Positions 18,156-60,890 of a stretch of DNA of 64,000 nucleotides are shown piece by piece. Source of the DNA: Sutcliffiella sp. FSL R7-0096. Lineage in GTDB: Bacteria; Bacillota; Bacilli; Bacillales; Bacillaceae_I. The stretch lies in NCBI RefSeq assembly GCF_038595065.1, contig NZ_CP152003.1, forward strand, positions 2,088,001 through 2,152,000, read 5' to 3'. The position numbers and the translations under genes are program-made. The notes under the pieces were generated by a model. That model was not told the origin of the DNA, ran no database searches, and saw nothing but the letters and a program-made list of their open reading frames with translations. Each line of letters opens with the position of its first letter. Position 1 is the stretch's first letter.

Positions 18156-18340
18156 GGCTCTTTTCTCAAAGATTGTTGCTAATTCAACTAGTAAAAAGTC
18201 GGCAATTGGACTTTTTACAGCTTGGATACTCTCGATATGCATGAAATATAATTAGTGTTACAGCGAAAAGAGCACGACAGTAAATAATAATAGGGATGGT
18301 TTAAAAATACGTAAAAGCAACAAAGTTTACGAAAACAGCC
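18156..18340 (+). mobile_element. MITE-like element, family B copy 1
   Basis: A 185-bp non-coding element. It starts GGCTCTTTTCTCAAAGATTG and ends AAAGTTTACGAAAACAGCC; the outer 25 bases of the two ends are inverted repeats matching at 20 of 25 positions. It is flanked by the 8-bp direct repeat TAGAATAA (18148-18155 and 18341-18348), a target-site duplication. Inside, GTAAAAAGTC (18191-18200) pairs perfectly with GACTTTTTAC (18209-18218). GAAAAGAGC (18265-18273) can also pair with the left end. No transposase is encoded. It fills half of the 360-base rplS-lepB gap. Confidence 0.85.
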
Positions 18341-18365
18341 TAGAATAATTAATGGTACATATAGA

Positions 18366-18385
18366 TTCTCGATAACTTACGAGAA
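18366..18385 (+). other. Small hairpin before lepB
   Basis: TTCTCG (18366-18371) and CGAGAA (18380-18385) form a 6-bp stem with an 8-base loop, 28 bases before the lepB start. Role unknown. Confidence 0.4.
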
Positions 18386-18413
18386 ACATAAAGGAAACGG
18401 CGGAGGAACAAAT

Positions 18414-18965
18414 ATGGCACGTTCTAAAAATGAGCTCTGGGAATGGATCAAAGCGTTAGCTATCGCAATAATTTTGGCAGCGGCAATTCGTTATTTCTTT
18501 TTTGCTCCGATTGTGGTGGATGGTGATTCCATGATGCCGACTCTTCATGATCAGGATCGAATGATTGTAAACAAAATAGGTTACAAAATAGGTGAACCGG
18601 ACCGTTTTGACATTGTTGTATTTCATGCCACAGTGGACAAGGACTATATCAAACGTGTCATCGGCTTGCCGGGTGATGAAGTCGAGTATCGGGATGATGT
18701 CCTTTATATCAATGGAAAAGCATACGATGAACCGTATCTGGATGAATTTAAGGCGCAATATCCAGATGGTCCTTTGACAGAGGATTTCACATTGGAAGAA
18801 AAAACAGGTCACAAAGTCGTACCGGAAGGGCATATCTTTGTACTTGGCGATAACCGCAGGTTCAGTAGAGATGGGCGCCATATAGGTACCGTTCCCCAAG
18901 AAGAAGTATTAGGGAAAACAAATATCGTCTACTGGCCAATTTCAGATCTGCGAAGGGTAAAATAA
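18414..18965 (+). CDS. lepB: Type I signal peptidase (SipS/SipT-like)
   Basis: 183 residues, the short Gram-positive form with one N-terminal membrane anchor (about residues 12-31). It removes signal peptides outside the membrane with a Ser/Lys dyad: Ser39 in GDSMMPTL and Lys80 in YIKRVIGLPGDEV. The late GDNRRFSRDGRHIG motif is also present. The ATG follows GGCGGAGGAAC. B. subtilis has no signal peptidase gene at this site. The gene is bracketed by two direct family B repeats, and its stop codon lies inside the target duplication of the second. Confidence 0.95.
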   Translation: MARSKNELWEWIKALAIAIILAAAIRYFFFAPIVVDGDSMMPTLHDQDRMIVNKIGYKIGEPDRFDIVVFHATVDKDYIKRVIGLPGDEVEYRDDVLYINGKAYDEPYLDEFKAQYPDGPLTEDFTLEEKTGHKVVPEGHIFVLGDNRRFSRDGRHIGTVPQEEVLGKTNIVYWPISDLRRVK

Positions 18966-18968
18966 ATA

Positions 18969-19153
18969 GGCTCTTTTCTCAAAGTTTGTTGCTATTTACT
19001 TGTAAAAAGTCGGCAAATTAGATTTTTTTTAGCTTAAATACTCTAAAGGTTGCAAGTAGTATTTTAAAGTACTGTAGGGAAAAGAGCACCACAGTAAGGA
19101 AAATAACGGGTTATGTATGAATACGAAAAGCAACAAAGTTTACGAAAACAGCC
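18969..19153 (+). mobile_element. MITE-like element, family B copy 2
   Basis: 185 bp, the same length and orientation as copy 1. It starts GGCTCTTTTCTCAAAGTTTG and ends AAAGTTTACGAAAACAGCC. The 8-bp direct repeats AATAAATA flank it at 18961-18968 and 19154-19161; the left copy contains the lepB TAA (18963-18965). The internal hairpin is decayed on its right arm (GTAAAAAGTC at 19002-19011, then GATTTTTTTT). It fills most of the 309-base lepB-rbgA gap. Confidence 0.85.
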
Positions 19154-19274
19154 AATAAATATAATATAATAGACAATCAGCTGTTGGTTGGAGCCCAGGG
19201 GGGAATTCAAAAACGGCGTTTGTCAGATACTATAAATAGCTTTAATTGTGCAAGGACTTCAGGAGGCAATTTTC

Positions 19275-20132
19275 ATGACAATACAATGGTTTCCAGGGCA
19301 TATGGCAAAAGCCCGCAGACAAGTGACAGAAAAACTCAAATTGATTGATATCGTATACGAGTTGGTGGATGCGCGTATTCCCGTATCATCCCGGAACCCG
19401 ATGATCGATGAAATCATCTCCAATAAGCCGAGAATCATTCTTTTGAATAAAGCGGATATGGCAGATGCAAAAGTCACGAGAGAGTGGCTGGACTATTTCA
19501 ATTTGCCCGGCTCCACTACAAAAGCAATAGCAATTGATTCACAGACAGGTAAAGGGATTCAGCAGATTGCAACCTTATCCAAAGAACTGCTTAAAGAAAA
19601 ATTCGATAAAATGCAGTCGCGCGGTATCAGGCCAAGAGCAATCAGGGCGTTGATAGTAGGTATCCCTAACGTAGGTAAGTCAACGCTGATCAATAGGCTT
19701 GCTAAGAAAAACATAGCTCAAACCGGCGATAGACCTGGTGTTACCAAAGCTCAGCAATGGGTGAAGGTCGGAAAAGAGCTGGAACTGCTTGATACTCCTG
19801 GAATTCTCTGGCCAAAATTTGAGGATCAGGAGGTCGGCTATCGCTTAGCAACGACTGGGGCGATTAAAGATACGATAATCAACCTTCAAGATATTGCTGT
19901 ATTTGCCCTAAGGTTCTTGACGGACGCATATCCGGAGCGGTTGATGGACCGATATGGACTCGAAGAAATACCAGAAGATATCGTGGAACTTTTTGATGCG
20001 ATAGGCTCTAAACGCGGATGTAAGATGAGTGGTGGGCTAATCGATTATGATAAGACCGCTGAGTTGATTATACGGGAGATCCGTTCCGAGAAACTGGGCA
20101 AGCTCAGTTTGGAAAGACCGGAAAAACTTTAG
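19275..20132 (+). CDS. rbgA: Ribosome biogenesis GTPase RbgA (YlqF)
   Basis: 285 residues (B. subtilis 282). Essential for late 50S assembly, binding the precursor particle that lacks L16. It is a circularly permuted GTPase: NKAD (58-61) comes before the P-loop GIPNVGKS (129-136) and DTPG (173-176). The [15 protein letters not shown] start is diagnostic, so the ATG at 19275 after AGGAGGC is used rather than an upstream in-frame codon at 19248. A terminator follows at once. Confidence 0.96.
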
Positions 20133-20163
20133 AAAAAGGCTGTTATCATGCAGCCTTTTTCTT
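20133..20163 (+). terminator. Terminator after rbgA
   Basis: AAAAAGGCTG (20133-20142) pairs with CAGCCTTTTT (20151-20160) around an 8-base loop. The A and T runs make it potentially bidirectional. Confidence 0.85.
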
Positions 20164-20185
20164 TTGGGGAAATGGAGTTAAATAC

Positions 20186-20956
20186 ATGGAAAAGAAGTCG
20201 ATAAAAGAAATAGAGAGAATGCTGGTTGGAATTGAAAGTGAAAAAGACCCTTTCCTTTTATCCATCAGAGAGGACGAGCGGAAAGGCGTCCAAGCCCTTC
20301 TGAAAAGGTGGGAAAAGAGAAGATTGGAAAAGGAGCAGCTTCTCGAGCAGTTTGAAGAAATGAAAAAATATGAACTTCTTCATTGGGAAAGAGGGTGCCA
20401 GTATATCGCCGGCATTGACGAAGTGGGACGCGGTCCTCTCGCAGGACCAGTGATAGCTGCTGCCGTTATTCTGCCGAAAGATTTTTACCTGCCGGGACTT
20501 ACTGACTCCAAGAAGCTGAGTGCGCAAAAAAGGGAACACTTTTTCCACTATATTAAAGAACATGCTATCAGCTACGGGATAGGCATAATAGATTCAAAAA
20601 GAATTGATGAAGTCAATATTTATGAAGCCACAAAGCTTGCGATGATGGAAGCGGTGGAAAATCTCCACCATATACCTGACCATCTATTGATTGATGCGAT
20701 GAAGTTGGATCTTGACATGGAGCAGACCTCCATTATAAAAGGGGATGCAACCAGCATATCCATTGCTGCAGCCTCTGTGCTGGCAAAAGAGACAAGGGAT
20801 ACATACATGAAGGACCTTGCACATGAATTTCCGCAGTATGGATTTGAAAAAAATATGGGATATGGTACACAGGAGCATCTTCTTGCTTTACATGAGGTAG
20901 GGGTGACCCGAGAGCACCGTCAATCATTTTCACCGGTAAAAGAAATGGTGGACTAA
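20186..20956 (+). CDS. rnhB: Ribonuclease HII
   Basis: 256 residues (B. subtilis 255). Cleaves RNA in RNA-DNA hybrids and removes single ribonucleotides from DNA. The GIDEVGRGPLAGPV motif carries the first catalytic acids. DSKKLS, LIDAMKLDL and KGDATSISIAAASVLAKETRD complete the site. It has the N-terminal extension of about 70 residues typical of Bacillus RnhB. Followed 17 bases later by ylqG. Confidence 0.96.
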   Translation: MEKKSIKEIERMLVGIESEKDPFLLSIREDERKGVQALLKRWEKRRLEKEQLLEQFEEMKKYELLHWERGCQYIAGIDEVGRGPLAGPVIAAAVILPKDFYLPGLTDSKKLSAQKREHFFHYIKEHAISYGIGIIDSKRIDEVNIYEATKLAMMEAVENLHHIPDHLLIDAMKLDLDMEQTSIIKGDATSISIAAASVLAKETRDTYMKDLAHEFPQYGFEKNMGYGTQEHLLALHEVGVTREHRQSFSPVKEMVD

Positions 20957-20973
20957 AGAAAAAGGAGTTAGCT

Positions 20974-22086
20974 ATGAATATCTGGCAATTGATCCAGCAT
21001 AAAGTAACTGCTACACAAAATATGTCTTCATTCAACAGGCCTCCCTCATTAGTTGAAAAAGATACTGGAGTTATGTCAACTGCCTTATCAACGGAGAAAT
21101 CAGCACCTCCTCAAACAACACAGGAACGCATTCAGGCAATCTTTTCACAAAAAGGGGATAATACGCTTACTGGCACTATTAGAGAACTTGTATCGGTGAT
21201 AGACCGCCTGCCAACGGTTGATAAGGAGAGAGCCATAGAATTGCTGAAAGTGCTTTCTAACCGGACCGGAATCACGAACATCCCTGAAAAGTTGCAAATG
21301 ATCCTATCAAGTTTAGCTGATAATGAGACAACCTTACAGACACTAGCAAAAGTGGAAACAAGTCTCCGGAACCTAACCATGCCAACACCTGCACAGCAAA
21401 AGCTTATGGAAGTCATTCAACAAATGCAACAGCCGCTAACAATCCATACAAAAAAGGAAGCGTTGCAATTTATCAGGCATGCATTGTCCTTGCTGGGTCT
21501 AGACTTTGAAAAAGGTCTAAATGATATGATGCGGCAGGGGCAGCCTTTTTCTGAGGAGAAAGTAGGGCGGTTAAAACCTTTATTGATGAATTATTTACAA
21601 CAAGTGGAAACTCCTGAAGAGAAAGCGGCGATTACACAGCTCCTTTCCAGATTGACTAGTTTCCAACTGCTTTCAAGGGAAGAAGGTAATCTTCAACATA
21701 TCTTTTTACCACTCCCGATTAAAATGCATGAAGAAGCGAAGGAATGGTATGTACATCTAAGCTCCAAGAAAAAAGAAGGTATGCTTGATCCGGATTATTG
21801 TCGTGTTGTCTTTCTGTTAGATATGCCTGTATTTTCTTCTGTGATGGTGGATGTATTCATCCAACAAAAAGTGGTCAGTATATCCTTACATCATTCCTAT
21901 CAGGGGATGGAGGAATTGTTAGAAAAAAGCTCATCGCTTCTTAGGAAGAGCCTATCCGTTAAAGGTTTTACTTTAAGCGCCATTAAAGCGGAGTGGAAGG
22001 AGCAGGAGAAAAAACCTGGTATACCTGTTGATTTTCTGAAGGCAATTCTTCATCCTAATGAGAAAGGATTGGATGTAAAAATATGA
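20974..22086 (+). CDS. ylqG: YlqG-like protein, possible FliK-type relative
   Basis: 370 residues with no signal peptide or membrane segment. The N-terminal two thirds are low in hydrophobic patterning and rich in Gln, Thr, Ser and Lys. The last 120 residues (from LPLPIKMHEEAKEWYVHL) look like the folded C-terminal domain of FliK: alternating strands, then a helix near ELLEKSSSLLRKSL followed by KGFTLSAIKAEW. Position between rnhB and the FlhB-like ylqH matches B. subtilis ylqG. It overlaps ylqH by 4 bases (ATGA). Function unproven; the FliK link is inference from pattern and partner. Confidence 0.75.
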   Translation: MNIWQLIQHKVTATQNMSSFNRPPSLVEKDTGVMSTALSTEKSAPPQTTQERIQAIFSQKGDNTLTGTIRELVSVIDRLPTVDKERAIELLKVLSNRTGITNIPEKLQMILSSLADNETTLQTLAKVETSLRNLTMPTPAQQKLMEVIQQMQQPLTIHTKKEALQFIRHALSLLGLDFEKGLNDMMRQGQPFSEEKVGRLKPLLMNYLQQVETPEEKAAITQLLSRLTSFQLLSREEGNLQHIFLPLPIKMHEEAKEWYVHLSSKKKEGMLDPDYCRVVFLLDMPVFSSVMVDVFIQQKVVSISLHHSYQGMEELLEKSSSLLRKSLSVKGFTLSAIKAEWKEQEKKPGIPVDFLKAILHPNEKGLDVKI

Positions 22087-22370
22087 AAGAGCACCTAGAC
22101 AAGAGGAAAAAAGCAGTTGCTATAAAATATGACCAGGCGAAAACAGTTGCCCCTGTTGTTAAAGCGAAAGGTGCAGGAATTATTGCAGAAAATATTTTGG
22201 AAGAGGCAATAAAACATAATGTTCCGGTCCAGGAAGACAAGGCGCTTTTGGAGATCTTGATAGAACTCGAACTGAATGAAACCATCCCTGAAGAGTTATA
22301 TGAAGTGGTAGCAGAGGTTCTAGCGTATGTTTACAACCTCCATGAAGTAGCCGTAAAGAATGTGAAATAA
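22083..22370 (+). CDS. ylqH: FlhB C-terminal-domain-like protein YlqH
   Basis: 95 residues that align with the cytoplasmic C-terminal domain of FlhB just after its NPTH autocleavage site. KAVAIKYDQAKTVAPVVKAKG here corresponds to YAIALKYDAEKGDAPIVLAKG in flhB of this window, and AEVLAYVYNL to AEILAYVYRL. There are no membrane segments and no NPTH. Such free FlhB-C paralogues (FlhX-like) are known elsewhere and may substitute for the cleaved domain. Coupled to ylqG, so the pair mirrors FliK plus the FlhB switch. Confidence 0.85.
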   Translation: MKEHLDKRKKAVAIKYDQAKTVAPVVKAKGAGIIAENILEEAIKHNVPVQEDKALLEILIELELNETIPEELYEVVAEVLAYVYNLHEVAVKNVK

Positions 22371-22497
22371 TCCACGTGAAAGTTTTTCAGCATAATGAAA
22401 GAAGATTGAATTATCTGTCAAATTGTACACGTTTTTGCGTTATATGTTGGTTTTGTCGACATAATCAGATGTCAATCTATTAATTTTTTGAAAATAG

Positions 22498-22503
22498 TAT
22501 AAT
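22498..22503 (+). promoter_or_regulatory. -10 element upstream of sucC
   Basis: A perfect TATAAT at 22498-22503, preceded by an AT-rich tract without a good -35. A second TATAAT lies at 22568-22573, closer to the gene. Which is used cannot be told from sequence. Confidence 0.35.
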
Positions 22504-22545
22504 ATTTTTGCAGAAAGGTAGACATTTGTCAGTGCATTTAATAAA

Positions 22546-22560
22546 ATGAAAGCGCAGTCT
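22546..22560. promoter_or_regulatory. cre-like CcpA site before sucC
   Basis: ATGAAAGCGCAGTCT fits the degenerate cre consensus WTGNAANCGNWNNCW at every position. It lies between the two candidate -10 elements and 46 bases before the sucC start, consistent with carbon catabolite repression of the TCA step. Inference only. Confidence 0.55.
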
Positions 22561-22605
22561 ATTTTTATATAATGTTCTGTTATACATAAGATTGGAGGAT
22601 GGGAA

Positions 22606-23766
22606 ATGAATATCCATGAATATCAAGGAAAAGAGATCCTCAGAAAATACGGGGTAGCTGTTCCAAACGGCCGTGTAGCATTTACTGTGGAAGAAGCAGT
22701 TGAAGCTGCAAAAGAACTAGGAACACAAGTTTGTGTAGTGAAGGCGCAAATTCACGCAGGTGGCCGCGGTAAAGCGGGCGGTGTGAAAGTTGCCAAGAAC
22801 TTGGATGAAGTTCGTGAATACGCGGGTGAAATTCTAGGCAAAACGTTAATTACTCATCAAACTGGTCCAGAAGGTAAGGAAGTAAAACGCTTACTTATCG
22901 AAGAAGGGTGCGACATCAAGAAAGAATACTATATCGGACTTGTTTTAGACCGTGCAACTTCCCGAGTTGTGTTAATGGCATCTGAAGAAGGCGGTACAGA
23001 AATTGAAGAAGTGGCAGAGCAAACGCCTGAAAAAATCTTCAAAGAGGTAGTGGATCCAGTTGTAGGTTTAACTGGCTTCCAAGCTCGCCGTATTGCATTT
23101 AACATCAACATTCCGAAAGAATTGGTTGGACAAGCAGTTAAATTCATGATGAGCCTATACACTGCATTTGTGGAAAAGGACTGCTCTATCGCAGAAATCA
23201 ATCCTCTAGTGGTTACAGGTGATGCGAAGGTAATGGCACTGGATGCGAAGCTTAACTTTGATGCTAATGCTCTATACCGTCATAAGGACATCGTAGAATA
23301 CCGTGATTTGGAAGAAGAAGATGCAAAAGAAATCGAAGCTTCCAAATACGATCTAAGCTATATTTCACTTGATGGAAACATCGGATGTATGGTAAATGGT
23401 GCCGGTCTTGCGATGGCAACTATGGATATTATCAAACATTATGGTGGAGACCCTGCTAACTTCCTGGACGTTGGGGGCGGAGCAACTGCTGAGAAAGTAA
23501 CAGAAGCTTTCAAGATTATCCTTTCTGATGATAATGTAAAAGGAATTTTCGTTAACATTTTCGGTGGAATCATGAAGTGTGACATCATCGCTACAGGTGT
23601 TGTGGAAGCAGCGAAACAAGTAGGACTTGAAGTTCCTCTAGTGGTACGTTTGGAAGGTACAAACGTAGACTTAGGGAAACAAATCTTACGTGAGTCTGGC
23701 TTAAACATCGTAGCAGCAGAATCCATGGCTGATGGTGCACAAAAAATCGTAGCGCAAGTAGGATAA
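22606..23766 (+). CDS. sucC: Succinyl-CoA synthetase (ADP-forming), beta subunit
   Basis: 386 residues, standard length. With SucD it interconverts succinyl-CoA and succinate with formation of ATP or GTP in the TCA cycle. The ATP-grasp domain is at the N-terminus ([28 protein letters not shown]), and the C-terminal CoA-ligase domain holds FLDVGGGAT and [11 protein letters not shown]. The ATG follows TTGGAGGATG. sucD starts 18 bases after the stop. Confidence 0.97.
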
Positions 23767-23784
23767 GAAAGGCAGGGGACATTC

Positions 23785-24687
23785 ATGAGTGTATTCATTA
23801 ATAAAGATACAAAAGTAATCGTACAAGGTATTACTGGTTCCACAGCGTTGTTCCATACAAAGCAAATGCTTGAGTATGGTACACAAATCGTTGGCGGGGT
23901 TACACCAGGTAAGGGCGGCACTGAAGTTGAAGGTGTACCTGTATTCAATACAGTAGAAGAAGCTGTCAAAGCTACTGGTGCAAATGCATCTGTCATCTAT
24001 GTACCGGCTCCATTTGCTGCAGATGCAATCATGGAAGCGGTAGATTCTGAGCTTGACTTGGCTATTTGTATTACTGAGCATATTCCTGTACTTGATATGG
24101 TAAAAGTGAAGCGTTATATGGAAGGGAAGAAGACTCGTCTAGTTGGTCCTAACTGCCCTGGCGTTATCACTCCTGGCGAGTGTAAAATCGGAATTATGCC
24201 TGGTTATATCCACACTAAAGGCCATGTTGGGGTCGTTTCCCGTTCTGGTACATTAACGTACGAAGCGGTTCACCAATTATCTCAAGAAGGCATCGGTCAA
24301 TCTACTGCAGTAGGTATCGGTGGAGACCCGGTTAACGGAACTGATTTCATTGATGTATTAAAAGCATTCAATGAAGATGAAGATACTTATGCAGTTATCA
24401 TGATCGGTGAAATCGGCGGAACAGCTGAAGAAGAAGCGGCTCTTTGGGTAAAAGAGAACATGACTAAACCTGTTGTCGGCTTCATCGGCGGTCGTACTGC
24501 ACCTCCTGGTAAACGTATGGGTCACGCAGGAGCAATCATCTCCGGCGGTAAAGGTACTGCAGATGAGAAGATTCGTGTGATGAATGAGTGTGGCATTGAA
24601 GTAGCAGATACTCCATCTGTTATGGGTGAAACACTTATTAAAGTCATCAAGGAACAAGGCATTTACGACAAATGTAAAACACATTGA
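23785..24687 (+). CDS. sucD: Succinyl-CoA synthetase, alpha subunit
   Basis: 300 residues, standard length. Binds CoA in an N-terminal Rossmann domain ([20 protein letters not shown]) and carries the phosphorylated histidine in [17 protein letters not shown]. The signature [20 protein letters not shown] is complete. Operon with sucC, ending in a 9-bp hairpin. Confidence 0.97.
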
Positions 24688-24700
24688 TAGATCAGAAAGT

Positions 24701-24729
24701 GGGATAGTCGAGCAGACTATCCCTATTTC
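24701..24729 (+). terminator. Terminator after sucD
   Basis: GGGATAGTC (24701-24709) pairs with GACTATCCC (24715-24723) around GAGCA, followed by TATTTCT. Good stem, weak T-run. Confidence 0.7.
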
Positions 24730-24763
24730 TGTTTAATTAAAAGCGGAAGAGGTGCATCATTTT

Positions 24764-25651
24764 ATGCAATTGTTGAAAGAGAGATTAATAACCCTTCACC
24801 ATTGTCCCCAACTAAGCTGCAAAACCATAAAACACCTTCTTAGACACGACCCTACGTTAGAAAATCTTTATAAGCACGCCCCATCAGATATTGCTTCCTT
24901 TTTCTCCATCAACCACCAACAGGCAGACGCAATCCACCAGTTCATAAGAATAAATAACATGGTTAAACTCCATTCCATTTATAAGGAGCAAAATATCCAA
25001 CTAATTACCATATTCGATCATGAATATCCTTCACTTTTAAAGGAAATCTACGATCCTCCTCTTGTATTATATCTGAAAGGCAACCAGCATCTATTGAATA
25101 CTAGGAAGCTAGGGGTGGTAGGTGCAAGGAATATGTCTTCCTATGGGAGAGAGGCACTAGGGTCATTGATACCCCCACTTATAAGAGAGAATTTTACGAT
25201 AGTCAGTGGGTTGGCAAAAGGGGTAGACATCCATGCACATTGTCTAGCGATGAAAATGAAGGGGAATACGATCGCTGTTCTTGGAAGCGGTATATTCAAC
25301 ATTTACCCCAAAGAGCATAAGGAACTTGCATATTCCATATCTCAACATCATCTCCTCCTTTCAGAATATCCTCCATATACTGCTCCAACAAAATGGAATT
25401 TTCCGATGAGAAACCGCATTATCAGTGGATTAAGTGAAGGTGTGATTGTGGTCGAAGCCAAAGAGAAAAGCGGGTCCCTCATAACCGCCGATCAAGCGAT
25501 GGATCAGGGAAGAGAGGTATTCGCAGTGCCAGGATCAATTCTTTCGGAAACCTCAAAAGGAACGAACTCTTTGATAAAGCAAGGAGCAAAGCTTGTTGCA
25601 GATACAAATGATATTCTTGAAGAATTAAATGGCTTTAAATCGGTTAATTAA
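24764..25651 (+). CDS. dprA: DNA-processing protein DprA (Smf)
   Basis: 295 residues from the ATG at 24764 (AGAGGTG upstream); a GTG at 24752 would add four residues. Binds single-stranded DNA taken up in competence and loads RecA. The N-terminal part resembles a SAM-like helical domain. The Rossmann-like DprA domain has GARNMSSYGREAL, SGLAKGVDIHAH, NFPMRNRIISGLSEGVIVVEA and SGSLITADQAMDQGR. Its usual neighbours sucD and topA are present. Confidence 0.95.
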   Translation: MQLLKERLITLHHCPQLSCKTIKHLLRHDPTLENLYKHAPSDIASFFSINHQQADAIHQFIRINNMVKLHSIYKEQNIQLITIFDHEYPSLLKEIYDPPLVLYLKGNQHLLNTRKLGVVGARNMSSYGREALGSLIPPLIRENFTIVSGLAKGVDIHAHCLAMKMKGNTIAVLGSGIFNIYPKEHKELAYSISQHHLLLSEYPPYTAPTKWNFPMRNRIISGLSEGVIVVEAKEKSGSLITADQAMDQGREVFAVPGSILSETSKGTNSLIKQGAKLVADTNDILEELNGFKSVN

Positions 25652-28193: not shown

Positions 28194-28206
28194 GCAGATA
28201 GGTAGA

Positions 28207-28243
28207 GGGGACTGACACACATGCGGTTATGTCAGCCCTTTTT
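28207..28243 (+). terminator. Terminator after topA
   Basis: GGG and CTGACA (28208-28217) pair with TGTCAG and CCC (28230-28238), with one unpaired A and a 12-base loop, followed by TTTTT. Confidence 0.8.
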
Positions 28244-28303
28244 CCTTTGTGATGAAATACCTTGTAGCAACGAATTTTTAAACGTATTTGGAGGAATCTA
28301 GTG

Positions 28304-29605: not shown

Positions 29606-29617
29606 TCAAATTAATTG

Positions 29618-48925: not shown

Positions 48926-48929
48926 GCAG

Positions 48930-49706: not shown

Positions 49707-49707
49707 G

Positions 49708-50796: not shown

Positions 50797-50825
50797 TGGG
50801 GAAAGAAAAGGAGAGATAGTAGACT

Positions 50826-54010: not shown

Positions 54011-54878
54011 TCAAGCAAGTCTATTAAGAGAACAAGTGATCCGATCGAGGGAAAGAAAGCTCTCCACAATCAAAAATGAAGCAAAGGCGATTGCAGTCAT
54101 GAGTGGAAAAGGCGGGGTGGGGAAATCTAATTTTTCCCTTAATTTCTCTTTGACTCTTCAGAAAAAAGGACACAAGGTCCTTCTATTTGATATGGATATC
54201 GGCATGGCCAACATTGATATTTTATTGGGCAACACACAAAGGCATAGCATCATCCATCTTTTTGAACCTGGTTTATCCATGGATGAAATTATTCAAAATG
54301 GACCGGAAGGCCTTGATTATATTGCAGGGGGATCGGGATTGAATGATATTTTCCATTTCGATGAGCGGAAGCGGAATCACTTTCTTTCCCAACTCCAAGA
54401 GCTTTCCTTCCGATATGACTATATTATTTTTGATATGGGAGCGGGCATTACAACAGAAAGTCTTCAACTGATCTTAGCTTGTAATGAAATCATTCTTGTA
54501 ACATTATGTGAGCCTACTGCGATGACAGATGCCTACTCTGCCCTGAAATTTGTCCACCACCATAATCAAGACATCCCTTTTCAACTGGTCATCAATCGAG
54601 CTTTAAATACCAAACATGCCAATAAGACTGCCGGCAGGCTTCAGTCCGTTACCCAGCAATTTCTGAAAAGGGACCTTTTCCACTTAGGATCTTTGCCGGA
54701 CGATAAATATGTCACCAAGGCAGTCATGGAACAGGCGCCTTTTGTCATCAAATATCCGACATGCCAGGCAAGCAGAGGGCTTGAGGAAATAGCTACCCGT
54801 TATTTGAATGAAGGCAACTCTTCTGACACCAAGAACACTTACACATTTATGTATAAGCTGCGTGGCTTGTTTCGTTAG
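54003..54878 (+). CDS. flhG: Flagellar number regulator FlhG (YlxH), MinD-like ATPase
   Basis: 291 residues. Activates the FlhF GTPase and limits flagellar number. The N-terminal DQASLLREQVIRSRE segment resembles the conserved activator region that stimulates FlhF. The deviant Walker A AVMSGKGGVGKSN and the DMDIGMANIDILLG motif define the MinD/ParA class. The ATG at 54003 lies inside the end of flhF. Confidence 0.95.
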   Translation: MNDQASLLREQVIRSRERKLSTIKNEAKAIAVMSGKGGVGKSNFSLNFSLTLQKKGHKVLLFDMDIGMANIDILLGNTQRHSIIHLFEPGLSMDEIIQNGPEGLDYIAGGSGLNDIFHFDERKRNHFLSQLQELSFRYDYIIFDMGAGITTESLQLILACNEIILVTLCEPTAMTDAYSALKFVHHHNQDIPFQLVINRALNTKHANKTAGRLQSVTQQFLKRDLFHLGSLPDDKYVTKAVMEQAPFVIKYPTCQASRGLEEIATRYLNEGNSSDTKNTYTFMYKLRGLFR

Positions 54879-54903
54879 CTTCTAGGAGAGGAGAACGTTT
54901 ACG

Positions 54904-55986
54904 ATGGAAAAAGTGAAAGTTCTAATAACAGATGATTCCATCTTCATGAGAAAGTTGTTATCGGATCTATTGGATAAACATCCATTGATCGAAGTGGTGG
55001 CAACTGCGAAAAATGGAATAGAAGCATTGGAGAAGATCCATGAATATTCCCCTGATGTCGTTACATTGGATGTAGAGATGCCCAGAATGAACGGTTTGCA
55101 GGCTTTGGATAAAATAATGCAAGACTACCCTGTACCAATTATCATGCTTTCGAGTACCACTGCAGAAGGATCGTTAAACACCATTATTGCCATGGAAAAA
55201 GGAGCAGTGGACTTTGTGGCCAAACCCTCTGGCTCAATATCCTTGGACATTCACAAAGTAAAAGAAGAACTGATCGAGAAAATCCTTCTTGCATCCAAGA
55301 CAAATGTCCGTGTTTTACATCCGGAAAGGAAAAAAGAGGGGAAAGCACTGTCCAAATTGGTGAAGTATAGTAAAATGGACCTATTGGAAAAATTGGCCAA
55401 CACCGAACCTTCTTTGGTTTGCGTTGGTACATCCACCGGTGGTCCGAGAGCTTTACAAGCAATATTGACAAAGATGCCCAAGTCGTTTCCTGCTCCTGTA
55501 TTCATTGTGCAGCATATGCCGAAGCATTTTACAAAATCGCTTGCTAACAGGCTTGACTCCATGAGTGCCATTACCGTGGTGGAAGCGATACATAATCAAA
55601 CCGTGGAAGCGGGAACAGCTTACATTGCACCAGGAGATTTCCACATGGAAGTAATTAAACACAGAGGGAACTTGGTCATCCAACTTCTTGATTCTGCTCC
55701 ACTTAAAGGTCATCGCCCTTCTGTTGATGTATTATTTACATCCATCAGCAAGCTTGCGAACCATAAAAAAGTTGCGGTGATTCTAACTGGAATGGGTAAT
55801 GATGGAACAGCTGGTCTTAGGCAAATGAAGGAAAAGGATGTGGGGTGTACATTGGCACTTGCAGAATCAGAGGGCTCATCCATTGTGTTCGGAATGCCGA
55901 AAGCTGCTATCCAGACAGGTTTTGTAGATGAAGTCCTCGATTTGGACGACGTTGCGCAAAGGATTCAACAATACATATATTCATAG
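54904..55986 (+). CDS. cheB: Protein-glutamate methylesterase CheB
   Basis: 360 residues (B. subtilis 357). A receiver domain (phosphoacceptor Asp in VVTLDVEMPRMNG) is joined to a methylesterase domain. Catalytic Ser is in STGGPRALQ, His in VQHMPKHFTKSLANRLD and Asp in GMGNDGTAGL. Demethylates and deamidates chemoreceptors for adaptation. The gene for its counterpart CheR is not in this operon, as in B. subtilis. Confidence 0.96.
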   Translation: MEKVKVLITDDSIFMRKLLSDLLDKHPLIEVVATAKNGIEALEKIHEYSPDVVTLDVEMPRMNGLQALDKIMQDYPVPIIMLSSTTAEGSLNTIIAMEKGAVDFVAKPSGSISLDIHKVKEELIEKILLASKTNVRVLHPERKKEGKALSKLVKYSKMDLLEKLANTEPSLVCVGTSTGGPRALQAILTKMPKSFPAPVFIVQHMPKHFTKSLANRLDSMSAITVVEAIHNQTVEAGTAYIAPGDFHMEVIKHRGNLVIQLLDSAPLKGHRPSVDVLFTSISKLANHKKVAVILTGMGNDGTAGLRQMKEKDVGCTLALAESEGSSIVFGMPKAAIQTGFVDEVLDLDDVAQRIQQYIYS

Positions 55987-55997
55987 GGGTGCAAGGT

Positions 55998-58037
55998 ATG
56001 GACTTAAACCAATATTTAGATATTTTTCTAGAAGAGAGCAAGGAGCATTTGCAAACGATCAATAATCGGTTATTGGAGTTGGAGAAACAACCGGAAAACA
56101 TTGAAATTGTAAATGAGATTTTCCGTTCTGCGCACACCCTTAAAGGAATGTCCGCAACAATGGGGTATGAGGACCTTGCCAGTCTGACCCATCAAATGGA
56201 GAATGTGCTCGATATGATTCGTAATAGCAAATTGACTGTCACTGCTAATCTATTAGATGTTATTTTCCGCTCTGTTGAGTACCTGGAAGAGATGGTGATT
56301 TCCATTTCAGAAGGAGGGGACGGAAAAAAAGATGTGAAGGATGTGGTCGCTCTCCTTGTTAAAATCGAAAAAGGGGAAGAGTACTTGGCACTGGAAGCAT
56401 CAGGGGTCAAGGACAGCAATGATCATTCTTTTGACTCCTATGAACTTACAATCATGCAGCAATCAGAAGAACTGGGCTACTTCCCATATGAGGTCACTGT
56501 CAGTCTTAGGCAGGATTGCCTTCTGAAGGCTGCCAGAGTATTCATGGTGTTTGAAGTGGTGGAAGGAATCGGGGAAGTGATAAAAAGCAACCCTTCCGTG
56601 GAAATGTTGGAAGAGGAGAAATTTGATCACAGCTTCCAGATTACGATGGTCGCAAAAGAAGAGGCAAGTAGCATAGAAGCAAAAATCATGAAGGTTTCAG
56701 AACTTGATCATGTGAAAGTTATCAAGCTGGATACTAAATCGCTCTCAACGACAGAAATGGAAAGTCAGACAGAGACAGCCATCCAAGAGGCTATATCGGC
56801 CCAGGAAGAAGCAGCTTCAGCAGCCGTCCTTATAAAGAAGCCTGAAGAAAAGGCAACCCCGTCCAAAGGGAATGCTTTATCCAATAAAACCATCAGAGTA
56901 AGCATCGATCGTTTGGATGGCTTGATGAATCTATTTGAAGAACTGGTTATCGACAGAGGTAGACTAGAGCAGATCTCCAAGGAACTTAATGAATCAGAAT
57001 TAACTGAAACGGTTGAAAGAATGTCGCGGATTTCCAATGACCTTCAGAATATCATCTTGAACATGCGTATGGTTCCTATTGAAACAGTCTTTAACAGATT
57101 CCCTAGAATGGTAAGGCAATTAGCGAGAGACTTAGGCAAAAAAGTGGATATCGATATTATAGGCGCGGAAACCGAGCTTGATAGGACAGTGATGGATGAA
57201 ATTGGGGATCCATTGGTCCACCTTTTACGTAACGCGATCGACCATGGCATTGAAACTCCGGAAGTGCGAAATGCAAAGGGGAAGTCTGAGGAAGGAAAAA
57301 TCACCCTAAAAGCCTACCATAGTGGAAATCATGTTTTGATTGAAATCATCGATAATGGTGCAGGTATTTCGAGAGTGAAAGTACTTAACAAAGCAATAAG
57401 TAAAGGGGTCATTGCTGAACAGGATGCAGAAAGGCTGAGTGACCAGGAAGTCTATCAATTGATCCTATCGTCAGGTTTCTCCACTGCGGAAGTCATTTCC
57501 GACATATCAGGTCGAGGAGTTGGCTTGGATGTAGTGAAGAACACGATCGAATCACTTGGAGGAAGAATCACGATTGATTCGGCAGAAGGAAAAGGAACGA
57601 CTTTTTCCATTCAGCTGCCATTAACCCTTTCCATCATCTCTGTTTTATTGACAGAGATTGAAAACGAAAAATATGCGATTCCGCTATCTTCCATCATTGA
57701 GACGGCCATTATAAAAAAAGAAGAAATCTTGACAGCTCACAATCAGGAAGTAATTGATTTTAGAGGCAAAATTGTACCGGTAATTCATTTAGATAAAGTT
57801 TTCCAGGTGGAAAAAGATAGAAAAGAAGACAATCGACCGGAACTATATTCTCTTGTTCTAGTGAAAAAAGGGGAACGGATAGCAGCATTGGTAGTAGATT
57901 CATTTATCGGTCAGCAGGAAGTGGTCCTAAAGGCATTAGGGCAATATCTGAACTCCACATTTGCGATTAGCGGGGCGACCATCCTAGGGGATGGCCAAGT
58001 AGCACTTATTGTAGATTGTAACGCGTTGATTAAATAA
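55998..58037 (+). CDS. cheA: Chemotaxis histidine kinase CheA
   Basis: 679 residues (B. subtilis about 672). P1 Hpt domain with His46 in AHTLKGMSATMG, P2 docking domain about 150-260 and P3 dimer helices. The P4 ATPase follows with NAIDHGIETPE, IDNGAGIS and SDISGRGVGLDVVK, and P5 is CheW-like and ends GDGQVALIVDCNALIK. Phosphorylates CheY and CheB. The ATG at 55998 matches the family start; a GTG at 55989 is in the ribosome binding region. Confidence 0.97.
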   Translation: MDLNQYLDIFLEESKEHLQTINNRLLELEKQPENIEIVNEIFRSAHTLKGMSATMGYEDLASLTHQMENVLDMIRNSKLTVTANLLDVIFRSVEYLEEMVISISEGGDGKKDVKDVVALLVKIEKGEEYLALEASGVKDSNDHSFDSYELTIMQQSEELGYFPYEVTVSLRQDCLLKAARVFMVFEVVEGIGEVIKSNPSVEMLEEEKFDHSFQITMVAKEEASSIEAKIMKVSELDHVKVIKLDTKSLSTTEMESQTETAIQEAISAQEEAASAAVLIKKPEEKATPSKGNALSNKTIRVSIDRLDGLMNLFEELVIDRGRLEQISKELNESELTETVERMSRISNDLQNIILNMRMVPIETVFNRFPRMVRQLARDLGKKVDIDIIGAETELDRTVMDEIGDPLVHLLRNAIDHGIETPEVRNAKGKSEEGKITLKAYHSGNHVLIEIIDNGAGISRVKVLNKAISKGVIAEQDAERLSDQEVYQLILSSGFSTAEVISDISGRGVGLDVVKNTIESLGGRITIDSAEGKGTTFSIQLPLTLSIISVLLTEIENEKYAIPLSSIIETAIIKKEEILTAHNQEVIDFRGKIVPVIHLDKVFQVEKDRKEDNRPELYSLVLVKKGERIAALVVDSFIGQQEVVLKALGQYLNSTFAISGATILGDGQVALIVDCNALIK

Positions 58038-58061
58038 GCTAGAAGATAGGAGGCAAAGAAG

Positions 58062-58511
58062 ATGCAGGAAACCTTACAGAAGATGAAGCTTATCGTTTTC
58101 GAGCTAAAGGGAGAGGAATATGCCATCCCTGTACAGCAAGTACGTTCCATTGAAAAGTTGATGCCAATAACGCGTGTACCCAATGTCGCTCCATATATTA
58201 AAGGGGTTATCAATCTTAGAGGAGTCATCATTCCCATCGTAGATCTGCGTTCCCGCTTTGATTTAGAGATAACTTCCCCTTCGGAATCATCCCGGATCAT
58301 CATTACCGTTATTGAGGATATGGAGGTTGGATTTATTGTGGATGCAGCAAATGACGTCATTGATATAACGGAAGATACAATAGAGCCTGCACCGGATGTT
58401 GTTGGCTCTGTGGAGAACAAATATGTAAAAGGTGTTGTGAAAATCGATAAAAGACTTTTCGTATGTCTAGATTTAGATGAAGTCCTCCAACTGGAACAGC
58501 TCAAGGGATGA
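58062..58511 (+). CDS. cheW: Chemotaxis coupling protein CheW
   Basis: 149 residues (B. subtilis 156). SH3-like coupling protein joining receptors and CheA. GEEYAIPVQQVRSIEKLMPI, RVPNVAPYIKGVINLRGVII and PVVDLRSRF-type IPIVDLRSRF segments are the family marks. The ATG follows AGGAGGCAAAGAAG. cheC starts 10 bases after the stop. Confidence 0.97.
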   Translation: MQETLQKMKLIVFELKGEEYAIPVQQVRSIEKLMPITRVPNVAPYIKGVINLRGVIIPIVDLRSRFDLEITSPSESSRIIITVIEDMEVGFIVDAANDVIDITEDTIEPAPDVVGSVENKYVKGVVKIDKRLFVCLDLDEVLQLEQLKG

Positions 58512-58521
58512 GGGAGGAATA

Positions 58522-59148
58522 ATGAATAATATAGAGAAACTGAATGAATTGGATCTCCTTAAAGAATTGGGAAACATAGGGGCTGGGAATGCTGCGACCG
58601 CCTTGTCCCAGCTGCTAGATAAAGAGATAAATATGAATGTTCCACTCGCGCGAATAGTCTCGTTCAACGAAATGATGGACCTCATGGGGGGCTCCGACAG
58701 ACCTGTTGCAGCTGTATTCTTGCGAATGGAAGGAGAGTTGTCGGGAAGTCTATTCTTTGTCCTTTCCATTGACGATGCCACTAAGCTTGTCAAGCAACTC
58801 ATACAAGATAATCAGTTAACCGAGCAGAACCTTCCATCCCATGAACTTGGCCTATCCGCTCTTCAAGAGGTTGGAAATATCATATCCGCACATTATTTGA
58901 CTGCGTTATCAGAATGCATAGGGTTAGTGGTGACTCCTTCAGTGCCACAGGTAACCATTGACATGGTAGGGGCTATTGTTGTCACAGGTCTCTTGGAAAT
59001 ATCCCATTTCAGTGACCATTCTATTTTCATCGATACAGAATTGACGGAAACGACGGATAATCTGGTTCAAAAGACAAAAGGCCATTTTTTCCTTATCCCC
59101 TATCCTGATTCGTTCGAGAAAATCCTGGCAGCTTTGGGTGAGAAATAA
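58522..59148 (+). CDS. cheC: CheY-P phosphatase CheC
   Basis: 208 residues (B. subtilis 209). Dephosphorylates CheY-P and binds CheD, forming the Bacillus feedback adaptation system. Both D/SxxxExxN active motifs are intact: DLLKELGN near residue 10 and SALQEVGN near residue 113. The ATG at 58522 follows GAGGGAGGAATA; an upstream in-frame start at 58477 lies inside cheW and was rejected. Its stop overlaps the cheD ATG. Confidence 0.96.
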   Translation: MNNIEKLNELDLLKELGNIGAGNAATALSQLLDKEINMNVPLARIVSFNEMMDLMGGSDRPVAAVFLRMEGELSGSLFFVLSIDDATKLVKQLIQDNQLTEQNLPSHELGLSALQEVGNIISAHYLTALSECIGLVVTPSVPQVTIDMVGAIVVTGLLEISHFSDHSIFIDTELTETTDNLVQKTKGHFFLIPYPDSFEKILAALGEK

Positions 59149-59648
59149 TGCTAGAGCTTGCAACTGTCGTTAAAGTAGGTATTGCAGAAATGGGTATAGT
59201 CAAGGCTCCGCAACTTATTCGTACATCAGGTCTTGGCTCCTGTGTTGGGGTTGTTATTTTTGATCCCACCTCTAAAACTGCCGGAATGGTCCATGTGATG
59301 CTGCCTGATTCAAGCTTGTCCCGGCTGACAGCTATCAATGTGAACAAATATGCAGATACGGGAATCGTACATCTAGTGGACTCACTCCTTCTAAAGGGGT
59401 TGAAGCCTTATAGCATGAAGGCCAAGATTGCAGGTGGGGCACAGATGTTTCAATTCAATAGCCCAACCAGTGAGATGATGAGGATCGGACCGAGAAATGT
59501 GGAAGCGGTAAAAGGGAAATTGGCAGCCTTGCATATTCCACTTCTCAGTGAAGATTGTGGAGGAAACAACGGAAGGACCATAGAGTTTAATCCTGAAAAT
59601 GGGAAATTGATGATAAAAACAGTAAATAAAGGTATTCGTTACATCTAA
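59148..59648 (+). CDS. cheD: Chemoreceptor glutamine deamidase CheD
   Basis: 166 residues, equal to B. subtilis. Deamidates receptors and stimulates CheC. Catalytic Cys in TSGLGSCVGVVIFD and His in AGMVHVMLPDS are intact, with the family C-terminal LAALHIPLLSEDCGGNNGRT. In B. subtilis sigD follows closely; here a family B element separates them. Confidence 0.96.
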   Translation: MLELATVVKVGIAEMGIVKAPQLIRTSGLGSCVGVVIFDPTSKTAGMVHVMLPDSSLSRLTAINVNKYADTGIVHLVDSLLLKGLKPYSMKAKIAGGAQMFQFNSPTSEMMRIGPRNVEAVKGKLAALHIPLLSEDCGGNNGRTIEFNPENGKLMIKTVNKGIRYI

Positions 59649-59668
59649 TGCTTTCGGTCTTAGGATTA

Positions 59669-59850
59669 GGCACTTTTCGAAAACTTTGTTGCTTTTACGT
59701 ACTTTTAAAACCAACCGTTATATTCCTTATTGTCGTACTCTTTTCCTGCGGTAATAAATTTACTACTGCAATTTTTAGAGTAAGTACGCAGTAAAAGTCC
59801 AATTACCGACTTTTTACTAGTTAATAGCAACAATCTTTGAGAAAAGAGCC
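59669..59850 (-). mobile_element. MITE-like element, family B copy 3 (reverse), between cheD and sigD
   Basis: 182 bp, in reverse orientation to the other three. Read on the minus strand it starts GGCTCTTTTCTCAAAGATTG and ends AAAGTTTTCGAAAAGTGCC. The 8-bp direct repeat TAGGATTA flanks it at 59661-59668 and 59851-59858. The internal stem GTAAAAGTC (59791-59799) with GACTTTTTAC (59808-59817) is kept with one bulge. The right end lies 24 bases before the sigD start, adjacent to the sigD ribosome binding site. Confidence 0.85.
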
Positions 59851-59874
59851 TAGGATTATATTAGGAGGAAAGCC

Positions 59875-60639
59875 ATGACTACTTCAACTTCAACGAACGA
59901 TTCCACTTACTGGAATCTGTGGAAAACCAAAAAAGATCCCGACGCTGGAGATTTTCTTGTAAAAAAATATATGCCTCTTGTCCATTACCATGTGCAGCGG
60001 ATTTCAACTGGCCTTCCCAAAAGTGTGAAAAGGGAAGAATTGAAAAGCTTGGCTTTCATGGGCTTGTTTGATGCTATCGAAAAATTTGACCCTTCGCGGG
60101 ACCTGAAATTTGATACATATGCTTCTTTTAGGATCAGAGGTTCTATTATAGATGGATTAAGAAAAGAGGATTGGCTGCCAAGGAGTGTAAGGGAGAAGGC
60201 AAAACGAATTGAGTCCACTTTGGAGAAGCTTGAACAAAGCCTGATGAGGAATGCGACCTTGGAAGAAGTGGCATTGCATCTCGGTATGCCAGAAGAAGAA
60301 GTGGCAACCGTCCTGCATGAGGTATTCTACTCCAACATCCTCTCCATGGACGAAATGCCGAAGGAGAACGATGAAGTGTCCCAAGGCGCATATGTCCTCA
60401 AGGACGATAAGACCATCTCTCCTGAGGAGGAACTCATCAAGTCCGAAGCCATACAGCAACTCATCCGTCATATTGAAAGTTTGACAGAGAATGAGCAAAT
60501 TGTAATCAGCTTGTTTTATAAAGAAGAACTGACACTTACAGAAATTGGACAAGTACTGGGACTTACCACATCCCGTATCTCCCAGATACATTCCAAAGCA
60601 ATCGTTAAATTAAGGAAGCAACTAGATCCTGTATGGTAA
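59875..60639 (+). CDS. sigD: RNA polymerase sigma-D (SigD/FliA family)
   Basis: 254 residues, equal to B. subtilis SigD. Directs late flagellar, chemoreceptor and autolysin genes. Region 2 includes LKFDTYASFRIRGSIIDGLR, followed by DWLPRSVREKAKRIE. Region 4 has the helix-turn-helix ELTLTEIGQVLGLTTSRISQ. The ATG follows TTAGGAGGAAAGCC. The gene lies between two inverted family B copies, unusual for an operon gene. FlgM is not in the window. Confidence 0.97.
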   Translation: MTTSTSTNDSTYWNLWKTKKDPDAGDFLVKKYMPLVHYHVQRISTGLPKSVKREELKSLAFMGLFDAIEKFDPSRDLKFDTYASFRIRGSIIDGLRKEDWLPRSVREKAKRIESTLEKLEQSLMRNATLEEVALHLGMPEEEVATVLHEVFYSNILSMDEMPKENDEVSQGAYVLKDDKTISPEEELIKSEAIQQLIRHIESLTENEQIVISLFYKEELTLTEIGQVLGLTTSRISQIHSKAIVKLRKQLDPVW

Positions 60640-60651
60640 ACTGGACATGTA

Positions 60652-60681
60652 GCCGGCTGTTATTTTAATCATTCAGCCGGC
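60652..60681 (+). other. Hairpin directly after sigD
   Basis: GCCGGCTG (60652-60659) pairs perfectly with CAGCCGGC (60674-60681) around a 14-base loop, 13 bases after the sigD stop. No T-run, so it may stabilise or pause transcripts rather than terminate them. Confidence 0.5.
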
Positions 60682-60689
60682 AATTGTAA

Positions 60690-60890
60690 AAGCTCTTTAC
60701 TAAAAGATTGTTGCTATTCACCAAGAAAAAGTCGGCAATAGGACTTTTTACAGAATAAGTCGGCAATAGGACTCTTTACTGCTTACATACCCTAAAATAT
60801 GCAGGCGGCCTTTTTAGTACAACTGGGAAAAGAGCACGACAGTATTACATTTAACGGTGACATCGAAAATACGAAACAATAACAAAGAGT
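60690..60890 (+). mobile_element. MITE-like element, family B copy 4, between sigD and swrB
   Basis: 201 bp, forward. The left end (AAGCTCTTTACTAAAAGATT) and right end are degenerate; the last 14 or so bases of the consensus are missing. AATTGTAA flanks it on both sides (60682-60689, 60891-60898). The internal hairpin region is duplicated: AAGTCGGCAATAGGACTTTT at 60729 and a near-identical unit at 60757, period 28. GGGAAAAGAGCACGACAGTA is conserved with copies 1 and 2. It takes up most of the 276-base gap. Confidence 0.75.

What the first reader, a model, noticed from the sequence alone, without database searches (positions are those of the whole stretch)
18156..60890. Four-copy MITE-like family (B) with about 25-bp inverted ends and 8-bp target duplications
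Copies at 18156-18340, 18969-19153, 59669-59850 (minus) and 60690-60890. The first two are both exactly 185 bp. Ends are imperfect inverted repeats starting GGCTCTTTTC. Each copy is flanked by a different 8-bp direct repeat: TAGAATAA, AATAAATA, TAGGATTA, and AATTGTAA for the degenerate copy. Different duplications mean separate insertions rather than one duplicated segment. No transposase is inside. An 8-bp duplication is typical of some IS families (for example ISL3 and IS1595), but the parent element is not in the window.
Basis: partly seen in the sequence, partly recalled or inferred. Interest (0 to 1): 0.72.

Follow-up and report, generated by a model that had tools for sequence, protein, structure and literature searches.

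The report
Transposase-free mini-transposons shared across Bacillales
Four short DNA pieces in this Bacillus-type genome are copies of a small mobile element that cannot move by itself; its end sequences match those of larger IS1595-type transposons in related bacteria, and over a hundred copies lie in this genome although no such transposon was found in it.

Summary
In detail: four copies, each with an exact 8-bp target duplication. Of 97 copies assembled, 43 have exact and 27 one-mismatch duplications, against 0.5 and 2.0 when flanks are shuffled. Relatives show empty sites for all four window copies (a single 8-mer; one base different for copy 3). In 400 kb compared with relative G011, 6 of 16 copies are own-only, 7 shared, 3 unscored.

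The same ends bound 1.4-2.0 kb IS1595-family transposons in other Bacillales (two found by their ends; 12 of 30 further transposase loci with exact duplications). Transposases with these ends group together. ISL3 is rejected on 50 loci. No IS1595 transposase was found in the window's genome, so mobilisation in trans is inferred.

In other genera the ends stay nearly constant while interiors change: hairpins, a GC-rich repeat, or transposase plus differing second genes. This is a new, widespread member of a known kind. Copies are mostly intergenic; one lies 8 nt past the likely sipS -10 box and two flank sigD.

The parts
18148..18155 (.). left target duplication of copy 1, TAGAATAA
   Evidence: one copy only in relative G011
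18156..18340 (+). copy 1, 185 bp, in the presumed 5' leader of sipS; insertion begins 8 nt after the -10-like TATAAT at 18143-18148
   Evidence: absent in 14 of 14 readable relatives
18191..18218 (+). internal hairpin GTAAAAAGTCGGCAATTGGACTTTTTAC of copy 1
   Evidence: conserved among 67 copies
18265..18273 (+). inner third copy of the tip, GAAAAGAGC, inside a conserved block
18341..18348 (.). right target duplication of copy 1, TAGAATAA
18961..18968 (.). left target duplication of copy 2, AATAAATA, overlapping the sipS stop codon
   Evidence: single copy in G006
18969..19153 (+). copy 2, 185 bp, 3 nt after the sipS stop codon
   Evidence: shared with G011, absent in 13 of 14 readable relatives
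19154..19161 (.). right target duplication of copy 2, AATAAATA
59661..59668 (.). left target duplication of copy 3, TAGGATTA
59669..59850 (-). copy 3, 182 bp, between cheD and the start of sigD
   Evidence: absent in 14 of 15 relatives, G011 has it with an internal deletion
59851..59858 (.). right target duplication of copy 3, TAGGATTA
60682..60689 (.). left target duplication of copy 4, AATTGTAA
60690..60890 (+). copy 4, 201 bp, degenerate tips, hairpin region duplicated, after sigD
   Evidence: single AATTGTAA at the empty site in G006
60891..60898 (.). right target duplication of copy 4, AATTGTAA

Best explanation
The four copies belong to a family of non-autonomous mini-transposons (MITEs) related to a Bacillales clade of IS1595-family transposons. 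SHOWN: they share about 25-bp asymmetric inverted ends and 8-bp A+T-rich target duplications with transposase-carrying elements of 1.4-2.0 kb in other Bacillales. SHOWN: relatives hold empty sites. INFERRED: an IS1595-type transposase supplied in trans binds both ends, moves the element and joins it to an 8-bp staggered target, which repair duplicates. INFERRED: the transposase comes and goes by horizontal transfer while the mini-elements stay; none was found in this genome, although some insertions look younger than the split from G011. INFERRED: the conserved internal hairpin and inner-tip block help the element move. Among paralogous copies they depart from consensus 2.6-3.6 times less often than the stretches between; in four own-G011 orthologue pairs all conserved blocks together change only about 1.6 times less.
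For: 122 left and 99 right ends at up to 3 mismatches in the genome, reversed controls 0. TSDs exact in 43 of 97 copies against 0.49 in shuffles. 4 of 80 copies overlap an ORF of at least 100 aa, against 1261 of 1398 random positions. Empty sites for the four window copies; in 400 kb of G011, 6 of 16 copies own-only, 7 shared, 3 unscored. The query matched 149 of 397 genomes of the order, 61 of 135 genera. In a named-genome scan 85 of 122 right ends pair with a left end plus TSD of up to 2 mismatches, 54 exact; shuffled 18.5 and 0.9. Two of these pairs, 1473 and 1920 bp with exact TSDs, encode IS1595 transposases (NF033547 210 and 203 bits, cut-off 75; PF12762 62 and 59 bits, cut-off 27). Of 30 further transposase loci, 12 have both ends with exact TSDs; the 8 loci at 41-45% identity have neither end pair. 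Tree of 27 intact rows: 19 with such ends and 8 without separate with support 100/100.
Against: No IS1595 transposase was found in the window's genome, so trans-mobilisation there is not seen. The Sutcliffiella transposon inspected (G004, 57% identity) has diverged tips, GCCTGTTTTC. The MITE interiors do not resemble those of the two full transposons I read, so they are not simple internal deletions of these. 18 of the 30 transposase loci do not show both ends with an exact TSD; besides the 8 divergent ones these are one-mismatch, unclear, one-ended or fragmentary cases. 16 of 97 own copies have 3 or more TSD mismatches, and 37 of 122 right ends in the named scan found no partner. An own-only copy could also be a precise excision in G011; for copy 1 absence in 13 further relatives argues for insertion, the other five own-only copies were compared with G011 alone.
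Confidence: 0.92

Rival explanations
1. The family derives from an ISL3-family insertion sequence, which also makes 8-bp duplications and has ends beginning GGCTCT or GGTTCT.
For: ISL3 elements of the order have asymmetric ends such as GGCTCTAAAATATATGTTGGGGT and 8-bp duplications, mostly A+T-rich; PF01610 occurs in 113 of 299 genomes of the order.
Against: PF01610 is absent from the window's genome. None of 30 + 20 ISL3 loci carries a pair of MITE-type ends around the transposase: best end mismatches are 5-9 of 24, except L096 with one 2-mismatch end that points away from the transposase and has no mate in the locus. A genus ISL3 copy has ends GGGTAAACAACTTTC.
Confidence: 0.02
2. The copies are now host-useful regulatory sequences (leader or spacer RNA structures) kept by selection on the host, not just mobile debris.
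For: Copy 1 folds better than shuffles (z -4.0) and probably sits in the sipS leader; copies 3 and 4 flank sigD downstream of cheD; an internal hairpin is conserved among paralogues. In the four orthologue pairs the conserved blocks change less, 37 of 395 against 34 of 230 sites, so weak constraint after insertion is not excluded.
Against: Copy 1 is absent in 14 of 14 readable relatives and copy 3 in 14 of 15. Promoter- and terminator-like matches are near or below shuffles in three of four counts; one terminator-like site against 0.5 expected lies at 18063-18080, outside the copies. Folding is expected from inverted ends.
Confidence: 0.06
3. Another, unidentified transposase that recognises the same ends mobilises the family in Sutcliffiella.
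For: 15 of 16 Sutcliffiella genomes have no PF12762 match, yet 6 copies are own-only against G011.
Against: Among elements examined, only those of the IS1595 clade have these ends; a lost or unsampled helper is simpler.
Confidence: 0.05
4. The four copies are an ancestral conserved leader or one duplicated segment.
For: None found.
Against: Different 8-bp duplications, empty sites in relatives, and copies in both orientations genome-wide, 45 and 52 of 97.
Confidence: 0.01

Closest known systems
IS1595-family insertion sequences and transposons (DDE_Tnp_IS1595 with N-terminal zinc-binding domain)
   Same: Ends starting with GG, 8-bp A+T-rich duplications; the full elements with the same 25-bp ends encode a transposase with zinc-binding and DDE_Tnp_IS1595 domains. 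Family features read in passages of PMC8101967.
   Different: The window's copies hold no transposase; the full elements examined carry a second, differing ORF beside the transposase.
MITEs of other bacterial IS families, for example the two of the IS6 family mentioned in PMC7986276 (passage)
   Same: Short, two ends, no ORF, flanked by target duplications.
   Different: Here nearly the same ends occur in many genera around unrelated interiors, and over 100 copies stand in this genome while no parent was found in it.
ISL3 family
   Same: 8-bp duplications, ends beginning GGCTCT or GGTTCT.
   Different: The rest of the end sequence differs and no ISL3 locus examined bears the MITE ends.
Merlin superfamily of eukaryotes
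   Same: Related transposase domain, terminal GG, 8-9 bp duplications (PMC8101967 passages).
   Different: Eukaryotic; the paper says Merlin transposases lack the zinc domain. Not compared here by sequence.

Membership tests
MITE (non-autonomous mini-transposon) | short element with inverted ends and no transposase gene | tested here: met
   185/185/182/201 bp, too short for a transposase gene
MITE (non-autonomous mini-transposon) | target duplications differing from copy to copy | tested here: met
   43 of 97 exact against 0.49 in shuffles
MITE (non-autonomous mini-transposon) | empty sites with a single target copy in relatives | tested here: met
   for copy 3 the single 8-mer differs by one base
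MITE (non-autonomous mini-transposon) | mobilised in trans by a parent transposase | not testable with these tools
   inferred only; no transposase found in own genome
IS1595-derived | full element with the same ends encodes a DDE_Tnp_IS1595 transposase | tested here: met
   L217 and L181, and 12 of 30 further loci with both ends and exact TSD
IS1595-derived | N-terminal zinc-binding domain in that transposase | tested here: met
   NF050000 51 and 53 bits, cut-off 28; Pfam Zn_ribbon_IS1595 24.8 and 22.4 bits, just under its cut-off of 25.4. A C..C-C..C motif is in 18 of 19 intact rows with such ends; the 19th, L288, aligns only from residue 67 of the query
IS1595-derived | 8-bp duplication and terminal GG | tested here: met
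   8-bp TSD as family feature from PMC8101967. Copy 4 has lost the GG
IS1595-derived | which ISfinder subgroup it belongs to | not tested
   ISfinder is not available here; Siguier 2009 is not held
ISL3-derived | full ISL3 element with the same ends | tested here: not met
   0 of 50 loci examined

The most novel reading that the evidence does not exclude
The 25-bp ends are a portable mobilisation signal that has repeatedly been wrapped around new interiors: different second genes beside the transposase, a GC-rich Bacillales repeat, and several unrelated hairpin interiors. That would make this an order-wide cargo-capturing mini-transposon system living off a wandering IS1595 helper, with an internal conserved hairpin and third tip that take part in movement or in end capture.
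Probability: 0.35. Interest if true: 0.6.

Novelty: new member of a known kind. Interest (0 to 1): 0.42.

Why it matters
It names the likely parent group of a high-copy repeat of this genome and of repeats with the same ends in other Bacillales, and gives a marker (ends plus 8-bp duplication) with which such intergenic repeats can be annotated instead of being taken for conserved leaders or unknown RNAs. A helper found in only one of 16 Sutcliffiella genomes while mini-elements number over a hundred in this one makes the question of how MITEs outlive their parents directly testable. Insertions before sipS and beside sigD are natural experiments on gene expression.

Tried and rejected
ISL3 as the parent: searched in own genome, family and order and ends inspected at 50 loci besides five; rejected.

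A full-length parent in the own genome: of 27 left ends without a partner, most were fetched among 20 stretches; where a partner could be seen it was mini-element size, the others had no recognisable partner within about 4 kb, and no long element was seen. The one 5.7-kb pairing was two separate copies. Transposase searches of the own genome were negative.

Viral contigs, plasmids and phages as a source of the parent: an exact right end gave 0 viral contigs. A degenerate end gave 4; three share one sequence, which I judged a chance match, and the fourth (L126) has a full match to the end pattern but neither a mate nor a transposase match in the 2.3 kb held, and is unexplained. Plasmid and phage searches with about 30-nt queries gave mostly weak hits. 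In the six regions opened no transposase is annotated at the match; one region has an IS21 pair about 2.2 kb away.

RNA-family explanation: Rfam at gathering scores finds only the L19 leader in the window and nothing on the interiors of the elements in 8 loci, where a tRNA and a T-box lie elsewhere. RNAalifold in a script returned energy 0 and no structure with both letter sets, so covariation was not assessed.

A first tree used a filter that demanded the zinc motif, which dropped four intact rows and made the invariance of its cysteines circular; it was rebuilt without that filter with the same split.

Literature: eight full-text searches listed no paper that I recognised as describing this family; I opened passages of only four of the papers listed. 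This covers the open-access library and those terms only. The B. subtilis 190-bp repeat is recalled and was not tested.
Full report
The observation. The four copies are at the stated places and each is flanked by an exact, different 8-bp repeat. The first two are 185 bp, the third 182 bp (minus strand), the fourth 201 bp with worn tips and a doubled hairpin region. The two ends are alike but not equal: left GGCTCTTTTCTCAAAGATTGTTGCT, right (reverse complement) GGCTGTTTTCGTAAACTTTGTTGCT.

The family in the genome. The window lies in a single contig of 4,908,118 bp. A BLAST search with copy 1 listed 43 matches, with 40 of 197 candidates scored. A two-end pattern gave 40 matches on each strand and none for the reversed control. 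Left ends number 122 and right ends 99 at up to 3 mismatches, with 0 for the controls. From the stretches I fetched, 97 distinct copies could be assembled; 65 are 181-186 bp. Their flanks give an exact 8-bp duplication in 43, one mismatch in 27, two in 11 and more in 16; shuffling the flanks among copies gives 0.49 exact and 2.0 one-mismatch per shuffle. Targets are A+T-rich, roughly TTTTAAAA. Of 80 copies with enough flank, 4 overlap an ORF of at least 100 aa, against 1261 of 1398 random positions in the same stretches. The genus is taken to be Sutcliffiella: same-genus genome G006 has a contig of the length of KV440964.1 (Bacillus horikoshii FJAT-14233), and G005 one of the length of LQXN01000063.1 (S. 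horikoshii DSM 8719). The order is called Bacillales in GenBank lines and Caryophanales in the current NCBI taxonomy.

Empty sites. The sipS and sigD neighbourhoods were read in 15 other genomes of the genus; one sipS locus (L307) lacked the neighbouring genes. Copy 1 is absent in 14 of 14 readable relatives; in G011 the site reads through with a single TAGAATAA. Copy 2 is present in G011 and absent in 13 of 14; G006 shows a single AATAAATA. Copy 3 is absent in 14 of 15, where the closest sites read TAGGAATA or TAGGAGTA once, one base off the window's 8-mer; G011 carries the copy with an internal deletion. Copy 4 is a remnant in G011, a right-end fragment in G005, and in G006 an empty site with one AATTGTAA; the gap of one relative (L330) was too long to be printed. 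Over 400 kb of G011, with flanks 87-96% identical, 16 copies were looked at: 6 own-only, 7 shared (some with deletions) and 3 not scored. Of the six, four have a gap of exactly -8; one (C1:1921048) the script did not call empty because the flank alignment stopped short, and I read it by eye; one (copy 1) has 6 unaligned bases. One own-only copy (C1:1997893) went into the tip of an older copy that is unbroken there in G011, which accounts for that tandem pair.

The parent. A DNA search over 397 genomes of the order matched 149 (61 of 135 genera) at E up to 1e-3. In the rows listed (the list is cut) full-length matches are all in the same genus; elsewhere only one end matches, over about 24-53 bp at 81-100%. 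Thirteen of 15 loci from other families could be paired: the same two ends 95-412 bp apart around other interiors, with an 8-bp duplication exact in 6, one mismatch in 2, two in 4 and five in 1. Of 122 right ends, 85 pair with a left end and a duplication of up to 2 mismatches (54 exact) and 37 do not; with shuffled duplications 18.5 and 0.9 pair. Two of the pairs are long: 1473 bp in Metabacillus mangrovi (L217, TSD TTCAAAAA) and 1920 bp in Perspicuibacillus lycopersici (L181, TSD TTCTAAAA). Both encode an IS1595-family transposase.

End and transposase go together. The M. mangrovi transposase has matches at E up to 1e-20 in 108 of 397 genomes; the window's genome has none, and in its genus only G004 (two copies, 57% identity) and a fragment in G014 match. 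A search with PF12762 found the domain in 1 of 16 Sutcliffiella genomes, G004. Thirty loci were laid out. Of the 20 loci L270-L289 (57-85% identity) 11 have both MITE-type ends with an exact duplication, one (L280) with one mismatch, three have both ends without a clean duplication (L271, L272, L276), and five show one end only (L275, L277, L281, L288, L289; several are broken or at contig ends). Of the ten loci L290-L299, the broken L294 (53%) has both ends and an exact duplication, the eight at 41-45% identity have no end pair, and L299, a fragment at 78%, has none either. A first tree of 22 rows dropped four intact rows by a filter of mine. Rebuilt with every frame of at least 300 aa (27 rows; L277, L287, L289, L294 and L299 dropped as short or broken) the 19 rows with at least one such end and the 8 without separate with support 100/100; the tool warns of long branches.

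ISL3. I looked at 30 loci laid out and 20 more fetched, a part of those listed. None has a pair of MITE ends around the transposase; L096 has one near-match (2 mismatches) that points away from it and has no mate.

Anatomy. In 67 copies of 178-187 bp (mean pairwise identity 0.79) both ends, a hairpin (consensus about 33-60) and a block with an inner third tip GAAAAGAGC (about 107-140) are conserved; the stretches between are not. Departure from consensus is 0.055 and 0.079 at the ends, 0.069 in the hairpin, 0.096 in the inner block, and 0.252 and 0.244 between them. In four own-G011 orthologue pairs the conserved blocks changed at 37 of 395 sites and the variable ones at 34 of 230. I read this as constraint acting mostly on movement and only weakly after insertion; with four pairs this is an inference. 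Copy 1 folds as RNA better than shuffles (z -4.0) and copy 2 as DNA (z -2.7, 2 of 200 shuffles as good), as inverted ends would make it.

Interiors and second genes. Of 83 short paired elements from named genomes, 37 contain a GC-rich repeat by my motif rule, 6 the hairpin of the window's family and 40 neither by that rule; several of the 40 visibly hold the GC-rich repeat in diverged or reverse form, or interiors shared within one genus. In the 13 full elements and the two an ORF of at least 70 aa lies on the strand opposite to the transposase outside its gene. Ten were scanned: a 2'-5' RNA ligase-like protein (L273), an alpha/beta hydrolase (L278), a HAD hydrolase (L283, as in L181), an HTH regulator (L274); the other six had no Pfam match.

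Neighbourhood. Copy 1 begins 8 nt after a -10-like TATAAT before the signal peptidase I gene (TIGR02227), so it probably lies in the mRNA leader; the promoter-like count in that region is not above shuffles (4 against 3.5), but the TATATAAT stretch recurs in most of the relatives' gaps. Copy 2 starts 3 nt after its stop codon; copies 3 and 4 flank the FliA-type sigma factor gene downstream of cheD. No effect on expression was tested.

What is known. The features of the IS1595 family (8-bp duplications, zinc domain in most groups, DDE_Tnp_IS1595) are from passages of PMC8101967. The founding paper, Siguier 2009, was not held. That IS66 elements can carry passenger genes ('tIS') was seen in a passage of PMC12888890 that cites it, and IS6 MITEs in one of PMC7986276; passages of PMC9208149 were also seen. 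My eight searches of the held library listed no paper that I recognised as an account of this family.

Verdict. An ordinary mechanism with an unusually wide footprint: IS1595-related MITEs of Bacillales, high copy in this genome, apparently moved since the split from G011, no parent found in the genome.

Noticed in passing
window 8589-8641, 13671-13723, 63367-63419: Three copies of a GC-rich repeat (CGCCCCGCGGAAAGCGAAGCC..) that resembles the interior of many elements with the MITE ends in other Bacillales genera.
   Followed up: partly
L073 (G000:C1:359878) and L085 (G000:C1:955153-955368): Own-genome copies with the same left end but with an interior like the GC-rich repeat instead of the hairpin interior.
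   Followed up: partly
G000:C1:1997717-1998076 and 3445142-3445500: Head-to-tail pairs of copies; for the first, G011 suggests that the newer copy went into the tip of the older one. The second was not examined.
   Followed up: partly
L087 (G000:C1:1326080-1326276): A copy with a doubled left tip, GCTCTTTTCTTAAGGCTCTTTTC, whose outer tip is the one flanked by the exact duplication.
   Followed up: no
L270-L287, L217, L181: The IS1595 transposons carry a different second ORF from element to element, on the strand opposite to the transposase.
   Followed up: partly
L286 (G004:C1:3966716-3967717): The Sutcliffiella IS1595 transposon inspected has diverged tips, GCCTGTTTTC, and is flanked by an exact 8-bp duplication; a second copy at 4614032 was not inspected.
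   Followed up: no
L126 (viral contig IMGVR_UViG_3300011805_000010), position 421, minus: A full match to the end pattern (GGCTGTTTTCTCAAAGATTGTTGCT) on a viral contig, without mate or transposase match in the 2.3 kb held.
   Followed up: partly
L318, gap after sigD (G005): A bare right-end fragment, GCAACAAAGTTTACGATAACAGCC, lies in the gap where the window has copy 4.
   Followed up: no
window 17647-17688: Ribosomal protein L19 leader (RF00556), 46 bits, upstream of rplS.
   Followed up: no
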